A DNA stretch of 64,000 nucleotides from positions 1,116,001-1,180,000 of the forward strand of contig NZ_CP076022.1 in assembly GCF_018622995.1 (NCBI RefSeq), in the 5' to 3' direction. Of the stretch, positions 30,538 to 38,150 are shown one piece after another. Below the pieces are notes generated by a model. It saw nothing but the letters and a program-made list of their open reading frames with translations, was not told the origin of the DNA and made no database searches. Numbering within the stretch: position 1 is the first letter of the stretch; each line of letters starts with the position of its first letter. Both the position numbers and the translations under genes were made by a program. The DNA is from Arthrobacter jiangjiafuii. GTDB taxonomy: Bacteria > Actinomycetota > Actinomycetes > Actinomycetales > Micrococcaceae.

Positions 30538-31821
30538 ATGACCTTTCCGCAGGCTTTCCAAACCGCAGGCTATACCGACGTTGACCTTGCACGCTGGGTC
30601 ACCGAGCCTGCCAAAAACACCAACCGCACCCAGTTCGGCCGCGACCGCGCCCGGGTGCTGCACTCCTCGGCGCTGCGCCGGCTGGGTGCCAAGACCCAGG
30701 TCGTGGCACCGGACACCGACGACTTTGTCCGCACCCGGCTGACCCACTCCCTGGAGGTCGCCCAGGTGGGCCGCGAACTGGGCAACGCGCTGGGCTGCGA
30801 TCCCGACGTCGTCGACGCAGCCTGCCTCTCGCACGACCTAGGGCACCCGCCGTTCGGCCACAACGGCGAGACCGCGCTGAACGACATTGCCCACGCCATC
30901 GGCGGCTTCGAAGGCAACGCCCAGACCCTGCGGCTGCTGACCCGGCTGGAGCCCAAGATCATTGCGCCCGACGGCGGTCCGGCCGGCTTGAACCTGACCC
31001 GTGCCTCCCTCGACGCCGCCACGAAGTACCCCTGGTCCATCGCCGACGCCCCGCTGGTCAACGGCCACCGCACCACGAAATTCGGCGTCTACGAGGACGA
31101 CCTGCCGGTCTTTAACTGGCTGCGCGACGGCGCCCCCGCCGGCCGTTCCTGCCTCGAGGCCCAGGTCATGGACCTGGCCGACGACATTTCCTACTCCGTG
31201 CACGACGTCGAAGACGCCATCGTCGCCGGGCACGTGCAGCTCAAGTGGCTGGACAACCCCGACCAGCGGGCCCGCGTGGTCGGCTACACCCAGCAGTGGT
31301 ACCTGCCCGGCACCGACGGCGCCGCCATTGAGGACGCGCTGAAGCGTCTCGAGGCGGATCCGGTCTGGGTCCGGGAATCCGACGGCAGCCGCAAATCCAT
31401 GGCCGCCCTGAAGGACATGACCAGCCAATTGATCGGCCGCTTCTGCAACAGCGCCCTGGAAGCCACTCGCGGCATCTACGGCACCGAACCGCTGACCCGC
31501 TACCACGCCGAAATGGTCATCCCCGAGGAGACCCAGCTCGAGATCGCCGTCATGAAGGGCCTGGCCACCACCTTCGTGATGACCACCGACCAACGCCAGC
31601 CGCTCTACGAACGCCAGCGCGAAATCCTCACCGCCCTCGTGGCTCAGCTCGCGGCCACCGGCGACCGGCACCTGGAGCCGATGTTTGCCGCCGACTGGCG
31701 GGAAGCGGCCGACGACGGCGCCCGGCTGCGCGTCGTCGTCGACCAGGTGGCGTCGCTCACGGACGGTTCGGCACTGGCACTGCACGAACGGCTGGTGGGC
31801 CCGGTACCGGCGCTCTGGTAG
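30538..31821 (+). CDS. dgt: Deoxyguanosinetriphosphate triphosphohydrolase
   Basis: 427 residues. HD-domain dNTPase releasing tripolyphosphate from dGTP (and often other dNTPs), shaping nucleotide pools for replication. N-terminal GRDRARVLHSSALRRLGAKTQV (39-60), the first metal His in RTRLTHSLEVAQVGRELG and the HD doublet in ACLSHDLGHPPFGHNGE are intact; further metal Asp in MDLADDISYSVHDVEDA. Belongs with dusB and dnaG in a conserved order. The last codons (PALW-stop) and the following bases recur at 34519-34545 between the two surface-protein genes, marking a duplication. Confidence 0.94.
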   Translation: MTFPQAFQTAGYTDVDLARWVTEPAKNTNRTQFGRDRARVLHSSALRRLGAKTQVVAPDTDDFVRTRLTHSLEVAQVGRELGNALGCDPDVVDAACLSHDLGHPPFGHNGETALNDIAHAIGGFEGNAQTLRLLTRLEPKIIAPDGGPAGLNLTRASLDAATKYPWSIADAPLVNGHRTTKFGVYEDDLPVFNWLRDGAPAGRSCLEAQVMDLADDISYSVHDVEDAIVAGHVQLKWLDNPDQRARVVGYTQQWYLPGTDGAAIEDALKRLEADPVWVRESDGSRKSMAALKDMTSQLIGRFCNSALEATRGIYGTEPLTRYHAEMVIPEETQLEIAVMKGLATTFVMTTDQRQPLYERQREILTALVAQLAATGDRHLEPMFAADWREAADDGARLRVVVDQVASLTDGSALALHERLVGPVPALW

Positions 31822-31985: not shown

Positions 31986-34448
31986 ATGCGCCCCCTGTCT
32001 CCTGTCTTTCGCCGCCGTCAACTCGTCAGATACTCCCGCAGACCGGCCCGGATCCGGAACCTCGCGGGGATGGTGCTGGCTCTGCTGCTGATCGCGTCGC
32101 CCCTGGCGGCGCCGGCCCAGGCCGCCATCGAACCCGAGCCTGTTCGGGGCAGTGTTTCTGAGAGAAACGCCAACACCGACATCGTGATCACCTCCCTCGG
32201 CAGCGGACGCGCGGTGTCCGGCGCGCTGCCGCCCCTTGGCAGCACCTGGCCGGTTGCCACCTATCCAACAACCATCCCCGGGGACTATGAGCGTGAAAAT
32301 GTCTCGTTTGCCGGCATCATCAACACCGAGGATGCCTACGGCACCACGGCAGAGATGTACTGCATTGACCTCCGCACCAGCACGCGGGTCAATGTCGGTT
32401 ACGGCGGCGGAACCTGGGATGAGTCCAACGTGCCGAACATCGGCTACGTCAACCGGATCCTGAACACGTATTACCCGAGCTCGGATCTCCCCGCCGGCTT
32501 GGACAACAACACCCGGGCGGCCGCAGTGCAGGCAGCCATCTGGTTCTTTACCGACGGGTACATCGTTGATCCCGACAGCTCGCTTTACCCGATAGTGGCC
32601 GGCATCGTGAACGACACCATTGAGGCAGGAATACTGGAAGAGCCGGATCCGCCGGCTATTGCGATCACGCCCCCCGCCACGGGAGCCCCGGTGACCGGTG
32701 TTGCCGGGCCGCACACGGTGACGTCGGAAGCGGACGAAATCGAGGTCACAACGGACGAAGGGTTCAGCCTTTACGCCGACGCCGCGGGGACGATACCGCT
32801 GAACAGTCCCGTGCCCAGCGGAACGCAGGTCTGGGTGCGAAGCGATACCGGAGCTACGGGGCCAGCGAATATCTCTGCCCGGGCCGCGGTCAGCGTACCG
32901 ACGGGCAACGTGTATCTGTACGACGGCGGGACCACGGGGCTGGACAACGCACAGAAGCTGATCCTCGCGGTCACACGCGAGCTGAGTTCCAATGCGACGG
33001 CGTCCGTTACCTTCACTGAAGTGGGATCGCTGGCCGTCACCAAGTCCATCGAGGGCCCCGCAGCCGGCAGCCAGGATGCCTTGGTGATCAGTATCGACTG
33101 TGGACCCGGATACCAGTTCACCTTCAACATCGATGCCAAAACCACCGGGACGCTGTCGGAGACCTTCAACGACATTCCGGCAGGCACGGCCTGCAGCATT
33201 ACCGAGCCCACCAACGGAGGCAACGACAGCGTCCAGGTCAGCACCATCCTGCCCGGCGACGTCACCATCGTGTCCGGAACCACGGTGACGGCGACGGTCA
33301 CTGACACCTACACGTTCGCCCCCGGGACGCTGGTGGTGCGCAAAGACATCACAGGCGATGGGGCCGGCCGTCAGGGCGTGGTGACCCTGCAGGTAACCTG
33401 CAGCTCGGGCTTGAACCAAACCATCACCATCGCGGCCGGGACCGTGGAACCCACCACCGAGGAATTCACGGGCCTTCCCGCCGGGACCACCTGCACGGTG
33501 ACGGAGACCGCCGACGGTGCCACAACCCAGGTCAGCGTAGAAGCCGTGGTCGATCCTGCCGGCGGAACGGTGACGATTCCGGCGGGCAACGGCGTGGAAG
33601 TGGTGGTAACTGATACGTACACGGTGAACCCCGGTGCCTTGATCGTCGACAAGGTGATCACCGGACCGGCGGCCCGTGAGCAGGGTCCCATCACGGTCAC
33701 AGTCATCTGCACCATGGGCAGAGAAGAAGTAATCCGGCAGGACCTCACCATTGAAGCCGGAGCCGGAGGCACCGTTCCCGGCACCGTCAGCGGAATTCCG
33801 GAGGGCGCCGTCTGCTCGGTCACCGAGCCGGTCACCGGGGAGAACGACGTCGTCACCGTGGTCACGGATTTGCCCGGCGACATCGAAATCATCGCCGGTG
33901 AAACCATCAACACCACGGTGACGAACACCTACAGCTTCGCCCAGGGTGAACTCGCCGTGACCAAGGTGATTGCCGGTGAAGCTGCCGGGCGGCAAAGCGA
34001 GGTGGTGCTCCAGGTTTCCTGCGGCCCGGATGGTTCGGTGCTGGACGAAACTGTGACTATTCCCGCCGGAACCACGGAAGCGGTCACCACCACTTTCGCG
34101 GACCTTCCCGCCGGGACCGAATGCGCCGTTACCGAAACAACGGGCGGGGAAACCAGTACCGTAAATGTGATGGCTGACCTGCCGGACCCGGTAATTATTC
34201 CTGCCCGCGGCGGGGTGGAAATCTTCGTCACCAACACCTATAGCCCGGTAATCGCTCCGACACCGAAACCGCAGCCAACCCCGGCTCCGGAGAAGCAGTT
34301 CCGCACGCAGCTTGCCTCCACGGGAGCGGCGGGAATCACCGGCTTGCTGGCAGCCGGAGCGAGTCTTCTGCTGGTGGGCGGACTCGCGCTGAAGGCCAAC
34401 CGCCGCAGGGCCAACATTGCGGAGGACAGTGGTTCAGACCAGCAGTAG
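31986..34448 (+). CDS. Thioester-domain surface adhesin, LAXTG-anchored, four Ig-like repeats
   Basis: 820 residues. A long Arg-rich n-region and hydrophobic core end in APAQA at about residue 46 (Sec signal). The segment 60-225 has the thioester-domain hallmarks: Cys126 in MYCIDL and Gln182 in AVQAAIWFF, able to form an internal Cys-Gln thioester that reacts with host or surface amines. After a beta-rich linker domain (about 230-345) come four DUF5979-type repeats (347-446, 447-549, 550-654, 655-753), each with a Cys pair. A Pro-rich stretch and LASTG (776-780), a hydrophobic helix and RRR tail form the sorting signal; the LAXTG form suits class E sortase. No sortase gene lies in the window. 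Start ATG 31986. Confidence 0.85.
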   Translation: MRPLSPVFRRRQLVRYSRRPARIRNLAGMVLALLLIASPLAAPAQAAIEPEPVRGSVSERNANTDIVITSLGSGRAVSGALPPLGSTWPVATYPTTIPGDYERENVSFAGIINTEDAYGTTAEMYCIDLRTSTRVNVGYGGGTWDESNVPNIGYVNRILNTYYPSSDLPAGLDNNTRAAAVQAAIWFFTDGYIVDPDSSLYPIVAGIVNDTIEAGILEEPDPPAIAITPPATGAPVTGVAGPHTVTSEADEIEVTTDEGFSLYADAAGTIPLNSPVPSGTQVWVRSDTGATGPANISARAAVSVPTGNVYLYDGGTTGLDNAQKLILAVTRELSSNATASVTFTEVGSLAVTKSIEGPAAGSQDALVISIDCGPGYQFTFNIDAKTTGTLSETFNDIPAGTACSITEPTNGGNDSVQVSTILPGDVTIVSGTTVTATVTDTYTFAPGTLVVRKDITGDGAGRQGVVTLQVTCSSGLNQTITIAAGTVEPTTEEFTGLPAGTTCTVTETADGATTQVSVEAVVDPAGGTVTIPAGNGVEVVVTDTYTVNPGALIVDKVITGPAAREQGPITVTVICTMGREEVIRQDLTIEAGAGGTVPGTVSGIPEGAVCSVTEPVTGENDVVTVVTDLPGDIEIIAGETINTTVTNTYSFAQGELAVTKVIAGEAAGRQSEVVLQVSCGPDGSVLDETVTIPAGTTEAVTTTFADLPAGTECAVTETTGGETSTVNVMADLPDPVIIPARGGVEIFVTNTYSPVIAPTPKPQPTPAPEKQFRTQLASTGAAGITGLLAAGASLLLVGGLALKANRRRANIAEDSGSDQQ

Positions 34449-34483
34449 GCCGCAGTAAACCCGAATCCGGGCAGGCCTGGAGG

Positions 34484-34516
34484 GGATCCCGCGTAGCTGC
34501 CGGCTACGCGGGATCC
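34484..34516 (+). terminator. Hairpin after the first adhesin gene
   Basis: GGATCCCGCGTAGC (34484-34497) pairs perfectly with 34503-34516 around TGCCG. No T-tract. The same GGATCCCGC arm recurs in the terminator behind the second adhesin, as expected if gene and terminator were duplicated together. Confidence 0.65.
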
Positions 34517-34518
34517 TC

Positions 34519-34545
34519 CCGGTTCCGGCGCTCTGGTAGCCCCGG
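34519..34545 (+). repeat. Duplication scar: ectopic copy of the dgt 3' end
   Basis: Twenty-six of 27 bases equal 31801-31827, including codons for PALW and the stop of dgt, although no dgt frame precedes them here. It sits directly before the leader of the second adhesin gene, so a unit starting inside dgt and running through the first adhesin was duplicated in tandem. Confidence 0.8.
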
Positions 34546-34679
34546 CCCCCGGGTCGAAGGAAGGGATTTTCCGGCTGCTCTCTAGCCGTGGGAGCCACCG
34601 GCCGTTACCGTTTGGCGTTCAGAGTCTCCCGAGCCACTGTCGGGAGATGCCGGACGAACTAGCGCACCCGAGGATCCTG

Positions 34680-37600
34680 ATGAGCCGTCTGCAATCCCGT
34701 GTATTCCGTCCCCGCATTCGTTTCGGATTCCCGGCAGGGAATCGCAAGACCCGTTTGCGACGTTTCCTGGTGTTCCTGACAGGCCTGTTGCTGATGGCGG
34801 TTCCCCTGGCGGTGCCGGTCCAGGCTGCGGTCGATCCGGGGCCGCCTCCCAACGAGGCTCCCGCCTCGGACGCCGGCACTGACATTGTGATCACGTCCCT
34901 GGGCGAAGGACGACGGAACGTCCCCGGGGCGCTGCCGCCGCTCGGGACCACCTGGCCCATCGACGCGTATCCCACCACCATTCCGGCCGGTTACGAGCGA
35001 GAGACCGTGGGTTTCGCAGGGGTCATCAATACTCAGGAAGTGGACGGGACCACTACGGCCCAGATGTACTGCATCGATCTGCGCACCTCCACACGGGTGG
35101 GCATCGGGTATGAAAACGGCACCTGGGATGAATCCAACGTTCCCAATATCGGATATGTGAACCGGATCCTGAACACCTACTTTCCGAGTACGAATCTCCC
35201 TGCCGGTCCCGACAACAATAGGAAGGCCGCGGCCGTGCAGGCCGCCATCTGGTTCTTCACGGACGGCTACGTGGTCAATCCCACCAACGACCTCTATGCC
35301 CCGGTTGCACAGATCGTGAACGACACCATCGAGGCCGGGCCGCTGGAGGAACCGGACGCTCCCGATATCTCGATAACGCCTGCCAGTGCGGAAGCGCCGG
35401 TGACCGGGGTGGCCGGACCGTACACCGTGACGTCCGAGGCGGATGAAATCACCTTGACGGCCAGCGCCGGCTTCGGCCTCTTCGCCGACGCCGCAGGCAC
35501 CGTGCCAATCACCAACCCCGTGGCCAGCGGCACCCAGGTCTGGGTGCGGAGCGAGGGTGGAGGCACCGGGCCCGCCACCTTCAGTGCCCGGGCAACGGTG
35601 ACAGTTCCCACCGGCAATGTGTACCTCTACGACGGGGCGACACCCGGGCTGGACGCTGCCCAGAAACTGATCCTCGCGGACACCCGGGAACTGAGCTCCG
35701 CAGCCAGTGCCACGGCGACCTTCTACGAGGTCGGGTCCCTGACGGTTACCAAGTCAATAGAGGGTCCGGCCGCCGGCAGCCAGGGCGCAGTGGTCATCAG
35801 TATCGATTGCGGACCGGGATACCAGTTCACCTTCAACATCGACGCTGAATCCACCGGGGCGTCGTCGGAGACCTTCACCGACATTCCGGCGGGAACCGCC
35901 TGCACCATCACCGAGCCTACCAACGGCACCACTGCCAGTGTGCAGGTCAGCACTACCATTGTGCCCACCGTTGTCACCATCCCCTCGGGTTCAACGGCAA
36001 CGGCAACCGTTACGGACACGTACACCTTCACGCCGGGAACGCTGGTGGTCACCAAGACCAACATCGGCGAGGCCGCCGGCGCCCAGGGCGACGTGACAAT
36101 TTCCGTGGTCTGCACTCTGGGCGGTGCCACCGTACTGGACACCACTGTCACCATTCCGGCGGGAACCCTCATTCCGGAGGCAGCCGAATTCCCCGGCCTC
36201 GACGCCGGCACCAGCTGCACCGTGACGGAAACCGCCACGGGGGAGACCACGGCTGTGTCAGTCGAGGTGACAGGGGGAGGGACCGTGACGGTTCCGGCCG
36301 CAGGAAGTGTCACGGCGGCGCTGATCAATACCTACACCTTCAACGCCGGGACACTGGCGGTCCGCAAGGACATCGCCGGCACCGGTGCGGGGCGGCAGGG
36401 CGTCGTCACTTTGCAGGTGACCTGCTCCTCCGGCCTGAACCAAACCATTACCATCCCGGCCGGAACCGTTGACCCCACCACTGAAGAATTTACGGGCCTT
36501 CCCGCCGGGACCACCTGCACGGTCACAGAGACAGCGGACGGTGCGACCACCGCGGTGTCCGTCGTTACCGTGACTGACCCGGCGGGCGGGGCGGTAACCA
36601 TTCCCGCCGGTGACGGCGTCGAGGTCACGGTCACGGACACGTACACGGTCAACCCCGGAGCACTGGTCGTGAACAAGTCCATTGCGGGGGCGGCTGCGGG
36701 CCGGCAGGGCGATGTCACCCTGCAGGTCACCTGCACTCTGGAGAGCGCAGTTGTCGCAGAGGGTGAATTCACCGTCACTGCCGGTGCAACCGGAACCGTT
36801 CCGGCGGGCACCCTGACCGGCATTCCGGAAGGCGCGAGCTGCGCCGTCACCGAACCCGTCACGGGCGAGAGCACCGAAATAGGCGTGGTGGTGGATCTGC
36901 CTGATTCCGTAACCATCGCCGCAGGCATCACTGCCACGGCCACCGTGACGGACACGTACACGGAAAACCCTGGCTCCCTCATCGTCACCAAGGTGATTAC
37001 CGGTGAGGCCGCCGGAAACCAGGATGCGGTGGAAGTGGACGTCCTCTGCACCCTGGCCGGGCAAACGGTATTCTTCGAGACGTCGCAGATCCCAGCGGGA
37101 CAGACCGGAGAGGTGGGTGCGGAGTTCCTGAACATTCCCTCGGGCGCCTCCTGTGCCATTACTGAACCGGTCACCGGGGCTACCGAGTTTGTCCAGGTTG
37201 TCCCCGAGCTCCCGGCGGCGGTCACCATCACCCCCGGTAGCAGGGACACCGCCACGGTGACCAACACATACACCTTTACCCCCGGCACGCTGGCGGTTAC
37301 CAAGGAATTTGCCGGTGACGCGGCAGGAGCACAGGGCGAGGTAGTGCTGCAGGTGACCTGCGGACCGGACGGATCGGTCCTGAATGAAACCGTGACCATC
37401 CCCGCCGGGACCGCCGAAACGGTGACCACCAACTTCGAGGACCTGCCCGCCGGCACGGAATGCACGGTCACTGAAACCGAAAGCGGAGCCACCGCCACGG
37501 TCTCGGTGGACACCGTGATCAGCGATCCGGTCACTATCCCGGCTGCGGGCGGCGCGGAACTGACGGTCACCAACACGTACGGGTTCAACCCCGGCGCGCT

Positions 37601-38090
37601 GGTGGTCAGCAAGGTCATCACGGGGGCGGCAGCGGGTAACCAGGGAGAAGTTGTCCTGGAAGTCCGGTGCGGCACGGACGGGTCCGCTTTGGATGAAACG
37701 GTCACCATCCCGGCGGGCACCACGGGGGAGGTGACCACCGAATACGAAGGCCTGACGGCGGGCACTGAATGCACGGTGACGGAGTCCAGTACCGGCGCCA
37801 CCTCCACCGTGCTGGTGGAATCGGAGGTCCCGGAGCCGGTCATCGTGCCGGCCAGCGACACCGTTACGGCTGTTGTGACCAACACCTACAGCCCGGTGGT
37901 CGCTCCGACGCCGAAACCCACCCCGGCACCGGTCAAGCCGACCCGTGCGTATCTGCCCTCCACCGGTGCCAACGGAACCGTCGGCTTCCTCGCCGCCGGA
38001 GCCGGACTGCTCCTGGCCGGTGGCCTCGCAATGGCGGCCAGCCGCCGCAGGGCCAACATTGCGGAGGATGACAGCAGCCATCAGCAGTAA
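34680..38090 (+). CDS. Thioester-domain surface adhesin, LPXTG-anchored, seven Ig-like repeats
   Basis: 1136 residues, paralogue of the preceding gene. Signal peptide to about residue 49 (VPVQA), thioester domain with Cys131 (MYCIDL) and Gln187 (AVQAAIWFF), spaced 56 residues exactly as in the paralogue. The beta-rich linker domain is followed by seven DUF5979-type repeats of about 100 residues (each opening G-x-L-x-V-x-K and closing V-T-[DN]-T-Y), a Pro/Lys-rich wall-spanning segment, LPSTG (1092-1096), hydrophobic helix and SRRR tail. ATG 34680 has GAGGA 5 nt upstream; ATG 34647, 33 bp earlier, has no properly spaced site. The differing repeat number and anchor motif (LPSTG against LASTG) show divergence after duplication. 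Confidence 0.85.
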   Translation: MSRLQSRVFRPRIRFGFPAGNRKTRLRRFLVFLTGLLLMAVPLAVPVQAAVDPGPPPNEAPASDAGTDIVITSLGEGRRNVPGALPPLGTTWPIDAYPTTIPAGYERETVGFAGVINTQEVDGTTTAQMYCIDLRTSTRVGIGYENGTWDESNVPNIGYVNRILNTYFPSTNLPAGPDNNRKAAAVQAAIWFFTDGYVVNPTNDLYAPVAQIVNDTIEAGPLEEPDAPDISITPASAEAPVTGVAGPYTVTSEADEITLTASAGFGLFADAAGTVPITNPVASGTQVWVRSEGGGTGPATFSARATVTVPTGNVYLYDGATPGLDAAQKLILADTRELSSAASATATFYEVGSLTVTKSIEGPAAGSQGAVVISIDCGPGYQFTFNIDAESTGASSETFTDIPAGTACTITEPTNGTTASVQVSTTIVPTVVTIPSGSTATATVTDTYTFTPGTLVVTKTNIGEAAGAQGDVTISVVCTLGGATVLDTTVTIPAGTLIPEAAEFPGLDAGTSCTVTETATGETTAVSVEVTGGGTVTVPAAGSVTAALINTYTFNAGTLAVRKDIAGTGAGRQGVVTLQVTCSSGLNQTITIPAGTVDPTTEEFTGLPAGTTCTVTETADGATTAVSVVTVTDPAGGAVTIPAGDGVEVTVTDTYTVNPGALVVNKSIAGAAAGRQGDVTLQVTCTLESAVVAEGEFTVTAGATGTVPAGTLTGIPEGASCAVTEPVTGESTEIGVVVDLPDSVTIAAGITATATVTDTYTENPGSLIVTKVITGEAAGNQDAVEVDVLCTLAGQTVFFETSQIPAGQTGEVGAEFLNIPSGASCAITEPVTGATEFVQVVPELPAAVTITPGSRDTATVTNTYTFTPGTLAVTKEFAGDAAGAQGEVVLQVTCGPDGSVLNETVTIPAGTAETVTTNFEDLPAGTECTVTETESGATATVSVDTVISDPVTIPAAGGAELTVTNTYGFNPGALVVSKVITGAAAGNQGEVVLEVRCGTDGSALDETVTIPAGTTGEVTTEYEGLTAGTECTVTESSTGATSTVLVESEVPEPVIVPASDTVTAVVTNTYSPVVAPTPKPTPAPVKPTRAYLPSTGANGTVGFLAAGAGLLLAGGLAMAASRRRANIAEDDSSHQQ

Positions 38091-38107: not shown

Positions 38108-38150
38108 AGAGGATCCCGCGCGGCCGGTGGCTGTGCGGGATCCTCTTTGT
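38108..38150 (+). terminator. Terminator after the second adhesin gene
   Basis: AGAGGATCCCGC (38108-38119) pairs with GCGGGATCCTCT (38135-38146), extended inward by wobble pairs, and is followed by TTGT. Shares the GGATCCCGC arm with the hairpin at 34484-34516. Confidence 0.7.

What the first reader, a model, noticed from the sequence alone, without database searches (positions are those of the whole stretch)
31986..38090. Tandem thioester-domain surface adhesins inserted between dgt and dnaG
Both proteins carry a Sec signal, a domain with Cys (126/131) and Gln (182/187) exactly 56 residues apart in the contexts YCIDL and VQAAIWF, Ig-like repeats, and a sortase signal. This is the layout of Gram-positive thioester adhesins, which bind host or surface amines covalently. 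Finding two of them in a presumably environmental actinobacterium, breaking a conserved replication-gene neighbourhood, suggests covalent attachment to an unknown surface.
Basis: partly seen in the sequence, partly recalled or inferred. Interest (0 to 1): 0.8.

Follow-up and report, generated by a model that had tools for sequence, protein, structure and literature searches.

The report
Paired thioester-domain adhesin genes in Arthrobacter
An Arthrobacter carries two neighbouring genes for predicted cell-surface stalks tipped with a reactive, glue-like domain of a known family, and the second gene appears to have been added beside the first by recombination at a chromosomal spot where related species keep one such gene or none.

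Summary
Both ORFs are real and encode thioester-domain (TED) adhesins: Pfam TED above its cut-off in both, 4 and 7 DUF5979 stalk domains, Sec-type N-termini and LASTG/LPSTG ends by eye. Gln182 (VQAAIWF, 56 residues after Cys126) is the central-helix TQxxxW motif, reported not essential for thioester formation. The likely partner is invariant Gln323 (AQKLILA), 197 residues after Cys126, as in class II TEDs (BaTIE 195, EfmTIE86 204). A confident model of A's TED (pLDDT 92.7) aligns best with solved TEDs, whose thioester Gln falls on Gln323, give or take one residue, if the last aligned stretch is ungapped. The stalk's isopeptide residues and two Cys are each kept in at least 97% of 233 domains. 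So these are class II TIE proteins, a known kind. In this genus 18 of 29 genomes have a TED gene between dgt and dnaG and 11 have none there; only this one has two. A relic of the dgt 3' end lies between A and B (34520-34539), so the pair most likely arose by recombination at this site. The target is unknown.

The parts
   Evidence: ORF; match in 58 of 59 genomes searched, own included; 20-mer
31986..34448 (+). Protein A, 820 aa: Sec-type N-terminus, class II TED, 4 DUF5979 domains, Pro-rich linker, LASTG sorting signal
32175..33020 (+). A: class II thioester domain (residues ~64-345)
   Evidence: Pfam TED 39.2 bits; AF2 model pLDDT 92.7; solved TEDs fill ranks 1-13 of VIA-align
32361..32363 (+). 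A Cys126, predicted thioester cysteine (YCID); the only Cys of A outside the stalk pairs
32529..32531 (+).
   Evidence: model helix 127-143; motif role in passages of PMC4450167 and PMC6194298
32649..32921 (+). A: Ig-like beta-sandwich insert that defines class II, roughly residues 222-312
   Evidence: model residues ~175-265; rows 14-50 match from about model residue 175 on
32952..32954 (+). A Gln323, predicted thioester-forming glutamine (AQKLILA), 197 residues after Cys126
   Evidence: invariant in the 45-row alignment A2; spacing; end-pairing with 5a0g, 5a0l, 5a0n
33024..34268 (+). A: stalk of 4 DUF5979 (CnaB-like, predicted isopeptide + disulfide) domains
   Evidence: Pfam; residue conservation
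34311..34325 (+). A: LASTG sortase motif followed by hydrophobic and basic tail
   Evidence: below cut-off of the anchor models
34484..34516 (.). Inverted repeat (terminator-like hairpin) after A
   Evidence: self inverse match; sequence
34520..34539 (+). Relic of the dgt 3' end (frame PVPALW-stop) between A and B
   Evidence: identical to the dgt end of several relatives; only this place and dgt itself match within 1 mismatch in the 3.59-Mb genome
34647..38090 (+). Protein B, 1147 aa from this ATG (1136 aa from the likelier ATG at 34680): Sec-type N-terminus, class II TED, 7 DUF5979 domains, LPSTG signal
34884..35729 (+). B: thioester domain, class II by identity and spacing (not modelled itself)
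   Evidence: Pfam TED 36.7 bits; 74% identical to A's TED
35070..35072 (+). B Cys142 (131 from ATG 34680), predicted thioester cysteine
35238..35240 (+). B Gln198 (187 from ATG 34680), TQxxxW helix glutamine, not the predicted thioester residue
35661..35663 (+). B Gln339 (328 from ATG 34680), predicted thioester glutamine
35733..37901 (+). B: stalk of 7 DUF5979 domains
   Evidence: Pfam; Cys count 15 = 1 + 2x7
37953..37967 (+). B: LPSTG sortase motif
   Evidence: TIGR01167 23.6 bits over a cut-off of 15.9; Gram_pos_anchor 26.5 over 20
38109..38146 (.). Inverted repeat (terminator-like hairpin) after B
   Evidence: match in 58 of 59 genomes searched, own included

Best explanation
A and B are class II TIE proteins (thioester head, isopeptide-bonded stalk, sortase anchor). 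Inferred mechanism: after Sec export the head forms an internal Cys-Gln thioester (Cys126-Gln323 in A, Cys142-Gln339 in B, numbering from ATG 34647). Each DUF5979 stalk domain closes with a Lys-Asn/Asp isopeptide bond helped by a Glu, plus a disulfide, giving a stiff arm of 4 or 7 units fixed to peptidoglycan by sortase. A lysine amine (or other nucleophile) on a target surface attacks the thioester, and the cell becomes covalently attached through the Gln side chain. The similar heads and similar first loops suggest the same kind of target at two reaches. Shown here: architecture, residue conservation, predicted fold of A's head, the site comparison, and the dgt relic pointing to arrival of the second gene by recombination at this site. 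Inferred: bond formation, reactivity, anchoring, target.
Against: No bond has been observed; AF2 does not model thioesters or isopeptides, and no coordinates were available here to measure distances. Class II alignments have rmsd 10.6-12.1 A (perhaps a lobe hinge), so the placing of Gln323 rests on class I range ends read as ungapped and on conservation. One such row disagrees by one residue: 5a0d, the Cys138Ala form of 5a0g, pairs 285 with 275 and would put its Gln on model 277. Gln182 is equally invariant, so conservation alone does not choose between the two. A's anchor matches and both TQXA matches are below cut-off. The sequence-profile search of PDB gave only weak hits (best E 0.035). 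3 of 9 in-site relatives have one Cys more than 1 + 2n. B's head was not modelled. No target, expression or phenotype data.
Confidence: 0.88

Rival explanations
1. The thioester forms between Cys126 and Gln182.
For: Gln182 is as invariant as Gln323 across relatives, and in solved TEDs this Gln hydrogen-bonds the Cys backbone (PMC4450167).
Against: Passages of PMC4450167 and PMC6194298 report that the Gln/Trp of this helix motif are not essential for thioester formation and that the bond uses a beta-strand PhiQzPhiPhi Gln. Here Gln182 lies in helix 127-143, while Gln323 sits where the thioester Gln of 5a0g, 5a0l and 5a0n sits if the range ends are read as ungapped.
Confidence: 0.03
2. TED fold kept but the thioester is absent or unreactive; the proteins work as ordinary non-covalent adhesins.
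For: Reactivity is untested; class II thioesters are described as reached only through a deep pore (PMC6194298).
Against: The TED Cys is the only cysteine outside the stalk pairs, and Cys and Gln323 are kept in 58 of 59 rows, which a decayed site would not be expected to show.
Confidence: 0.08
3. Same chemistry, but the target is another bacterial cell (aggregation, mating) rather than a host or a material surface.
For: The class II TED protein TIEpLS20 of B. subtilis is required for efficient conjugation and has the same YCID motif (PMC8092201).
Against: A and B sit on the chromosome between dgt and dnaG, and tblastn of A's head found no match in the 72,556-record plasmid collection at E 1e-5. 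Neither excludes cell-cell binding. The wider neighbourhood was not searched for conjugation genes.
Confidence: 0.35
4. The tandem pair is an ancestral duplication, with single-copy relatives having lost one gene each.
For: A-type and B-type heads each occur singly at this site in other species. The DNA upstream of B resembles that of both a B-type species (G013, 80% over 169 bp) and an A-type species (G015, 79% over 169 bp), so upstream DNA does not track head type.
Against: The dgt 3'-end relic directly upstream of B indicates that B's block once lay next to a dgt gene and was joined behind A. None of the other 28 genomes of the genus has two TED matches in the gap. A duplication that carried the dgt end along would also leave such a relic, so only the age of the event is at issue.
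Confidence: 0.15

Closest known systems
BaTIE, SaTIE, EfmTIE86 (class II TIE proteins; 6FWV, 6FX6, 6FWY)
   Same: N-terminal class II TED with Cys-Gln spacing 171-204, CnaB-type isopeptide domains, sortase-type surface proteins (PMC6194298, outline and passages); the model of A's TED aligns over both lobes
   Different: 12-13% identity over the aligned TED; stalk family is DUF5979 with a conserved Cys pair; 4-13 repeats in the 11 in-site proteins counted; dgt-dnaG locus of Arthrobacter
TIEpLS20 (B. subtilis plasmid pLS20 gene 34)
   Same: Class II TED with YCID and a predicted Cys-Gln pair 188 apart, CnaB-like stalk (PMC8092201, outline and passages)
   Different: Plasmid conjugation operon and no sortase signal, whereas A and B are chromosomal with LASTG/LPSTG
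SfbI, PnTIE, CpTIE (class I TED proteins)
   Same: Head lobe fold and thioester chemistry; SfbI bonds covalently to a fibrinogen lysine (PMC4450167, passages)
   Different: No beta-sandwich insert; Cys-Gln 129-153 apart
DUF5979 (PF19407) isopeptide domains
   Same: Listed as a CnaB-like isopeptide family (PMC12617251, passages); Lys/Glu/Asn-Asp positions kept here
   Different: Paired cysteines are conserved here. The passages seen report disulfides beside isopeptides for other named families and for 41.3% of Actinomycetota domains; whether DUF5979 is in its disulfide table was not seen

Membership tests
Pfam TED (PF08341) | Score above curated cut-off (22 bits) | tested here: met
   39.2 and 36.7 bits
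Thioester domain, general | Cys in [YFL]C-hydrophobic-hydrophilic motif | tested here: met
   YCID in A and B
Thioester domain, general | Thioester Gln in PhiQzPhiPhi strand motif | tested here: met
   AQKLI, Gln323/Gln339; Gln invariant in 45 rows; place agrees with 5a0g, 5a0l, 5a0n and is one residue off with 5a0d
Thioester domain, general | TQxxPhiW helix motif | tested here: met
   VQAAIW (V in place of T) in helix 127-143
Class II TED | Beta-sandwich inserted between helical core and thioester Gln | tested here: met
   A only: model strands 178-257 between helices and Gln; class II entries align over 216-243 residues, Ig-like chains match from about 175 on
TED | Internal thioester bond and amine reactivity | not testable with these tools
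   Needs mass spectrometry
TIE protein | Sec signal, TED at N-terminus, isopeptide/ester stalk, sortase anchor | tested here: met
   signals by eye; A's anchor by motif only (models below cut-off)
DUF5979 isopeptide domain | Pfam score and Lys/Glu/Asn-Asp set | tested here: met
   174 and 305.8 bits; Lys 228, Glu 228, Asn/Asp 232 of 233; bond itself not observed
NCBIfam TQXA_dom (TIGR03934) | Score above curated cut-off (30.4) | tested here: not met
   25.7 and 20.6 bits

The most novel reading that the evidence does not exclude
The dgt-dnaG gap is an exchange locus for covalent adhesins in Arthrobacter. Interchangeable TED genes with stalks of 4 to 13 double-locked (isopeptide plus disulfide) units are gained, lost, swapped between head types and occasionally stacked through homologous recombination anchored in the housekeeping flanks, so that a non-pathogen tunes covalent attachment by reach and target.
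Probability: 0.35. Interest if true: 0.5.

Novelty: new member of a known kind. Interest (0 to 1): 0.33.

Why it matters
It extends class II TIE adhesins, best studied in pathogens, to a genus-wide set in Arthrobacter; the open-access library searched holds no paper with both 'Arthrobacter' and 'thioester domain'. It corrects which glutamine should be mutated or looked for by mass spectrometry. The natural A/B pair, with similar heads and different stalk lengths at one site, and the site's empty, single and double states make questions about reach, target and adhesin turnover testable in a genus that is mostly environmental (recalled).

Tried and rejected
Cys126-Gln182 as thioester pair: rejected (helix TQ motif), although it is as invariant as Gln323. 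Tandem as an old duplication: disfavoured, not excluded. Plasmid link: tblastn of A's TED found no match in 72,556 plasmid records at E 1e-5. Sequence-profile search of PDB: only weak matches, best E 0.035, so I relied on the fold. NCBIfam TQXA (both) and A's anchor models stayed below cut-off. A structure for the Ignavibacteria-type TED (alignment A3) could not be run. Foldseek 'pdb' was never obtained, only VIA-align's second look at 989 of the 1000 chains that Foldseek ranks highest. Direct-repeat search found A-B stretches 69-77% alike, as expected of paralogs; it gave no further clue.

The dgt-dnaG tallies were read by eye from the tables and are distances between matches, not between annotated genes. 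Rows dropped: L004 (no motif match) from the TED extraction (31 of 32 loci kept), and L016 (truncated) from the tree (30 rows). Alignment A1 took 15 of those TEDs. Alignment A2 used the window's two and 43 of the 62 loci (near-duplicates L035, L039, L041 and the distant L079-L094 left out). A3 took 8 of the 16 distant loci. The domain profile was built from 11 of the 13 DUF5979 domains of the own genome's three proteins; A's fourth and B's seventh were missed by the extraction pattern.
Full report
Observation. Pfam finds TED in A and B above its cut-off (39.2 and 36.7 bits against 22) and DUF5979 4 and 7 times; DUF7601 also passes narrowly in A (27.4 against 27) and in B (36.9) on the same repeats. 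Sec-type N-termini and LASTG/LPSTG C-termini are visible by eye. B's anchor passes TIGR01167 and Gram_pos_anchor; A's anchor matches stay below cut-off. The own genome (one 3.59-Mb contig) holds a third TED protein far away, at C1:492386, ending in LPKTG, and two sortase matches.

Who it is.

The wrong glutamine. In the passages read of PMC4450167 and PMC6194298 this is the central-helix TQxxxW motif, whose Gln and Trp are reported not essential for thioester formation. The bond uses a beta-strand Gln 129-153 residues after Cys in class I (SfbI 109-261, PnTIE 94-247, CpTIE 138-267) and 171-204 after it in class II (BaTIE 71-266, SaTIE 296-467, EfmTIE86 88-292). A Gln in AQKLILA, residue 323 of A and 339 of B, is invariant in a 45-row alignment; so is Gln182, so conservation alone does not decide. 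One search gave 73 rows. Of the 59 from L033-L078, the in-site loci and the window, 58 have the Cys and both Gln, with Cys-to-second-Gln spacing 196-207; the exception, L058, lacks the Cys region. Some of these rows are the same gene fetched twice. Of the 14 other rows (distant loci L079-L094 and one short fragment), 9 have all three residues (spacing 189-221), 3 end before the second Gln and 2 are fragments.

Stalk. DUF5979 is listed among CnaB-like isopeptide families in PMC12617251 (passages). In 233 domain hits from 52 proteins, gathered with a profile of 11 own-genome domains, the expected Lys is kept in 228, Glu in 228, Asn/Asp in 232 (154 Asn, 78 Asp) and each of two Cys in 227; the hits were selected by that profile, so they lean towards it. 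A has 9 Cys and B has 15, exactly one TED Cys plus two per stalk domain. Of 9 relatives at the same site, 6 follow this rule and 3 have one extra Cys. Stalk length at the site, over A, B and those 9 relatives, ranges from 4 to 13 domains.

Site. Comparing dgt, dnaG and TED match positions, 18 of 29 genomes of the genus (own included) have a TED match in the gap; 11 of 29 have 39-96 bp between the two matches and carry TED genes elsewhere. Of 8 genomes from other genera of the family none has a TED match; 4 have dgt and dnaG matches within 130 bp, 3 have 1.7-2.7 kb between them (contents not examined), and one lacks a dgt match. Only the window's genome has two TED matches in the gap. In the TED tree A groups with single-copy in-site genes of G012, G015, G016, G026 and G028 (100/100), and B with those of G001, G002, G003, G013 and G019 (89/93, below the starred level). 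Of the 9 in-site proteins compared by BLAST, G004, G008, G009, G020 and G027 are nearer to A, G001, G003 and G021 nearer to B, and G014 is about equal.

How the pair arose. Just after A's terminator-like hairpin (34484-34516) lies 34520-34539, an exact copy of the dgt 3' end of several relatives and one mismatch from the window's own dgt end (31802-31821), readable as PVPALW-stop. In the whole genome only these two places match within one mismatch; four more match at three. The 169 bp that begin with the relic are 80% identical to the dgt-TED region of G013 (B-type head) and 79% to that of G015 (A-type head), while the DNA upstream of A is nearest to G001, G003, G014 and G021, so upstream DNA and head type do not go together. 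The simplest reading is that a block beginning in the dgt tail and carrying B was joined behind A by recombination between chromosomes that each had a TED gene at this site. The 198-bp gap between A and B has no room for an integrase or transposase gene.

Function. By homology the head should form a thioester and bond covalently to an amine. SfbI does so with fibrinogen (PMC4450167, passages), and in B. [quoted passage not shown] The target is unknown: host tissue, plant surface, material or another bacterium are all open. No plasmid relative was found in one collection.

Verdict. A well-supported class II TIE adhesin pair: a new member of a known kind. The informative additions are the corrected thioester Gln, the double cross-link signature of the stalk, and the recombination scar that explains the tandem. 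Literature statements rest on searches of an open-access library and on passages or outlines of five papers; no paper there held both 'Arthrobacter' and 'thioester domain', which does not cover subscription journals.

Noticed in passing
L081, L084, L085, L087, L088, L089, L091, L092 (proteins at the matches): Class-II-like TEDs in MAGs labelled Ignavibacteria/Ignavibacteriales/Melioribacteraceae/Stygiobacter: YC[IV]D, QxAIW and QKLV[LI]ATP in all 8 aligned, Cys-Gln spacing 189-199. Of 4 proteins scanned, 4 pass Pfam TED, 3 end in a type IX secretion tail (Por_Secre_tail) and carry an ice-binding-like adhesive domain; the fourth, L081, runs off its stretch. PMC4450167 describes its TED hits as exclusively Gram-positive; this points to covalent adhesins displayed by Gram-negatives. 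MAGs only; a structure job could not be run.
   Followed up: partly
L004 (G038:C1:218845-220266): A same-order genome has two TED matches listed with the same open frame of 1414 codons, so probably a tandem TED in a single protein.
   Followed up: no
G014 (Arthrobacter sp. ATA002), C1:2905007-2911575: Both dgt and dnaG match in two overlapping pieces in different frames, perhaps assembly frameshifts rather than lost genes.
   Followed up: no
L083: A Polyangiaceae MAG protein matches the TED profile (E 5.5e-18) with Cys and helix Gln, but the alignment stops before the second Gln.
   Followed up: no
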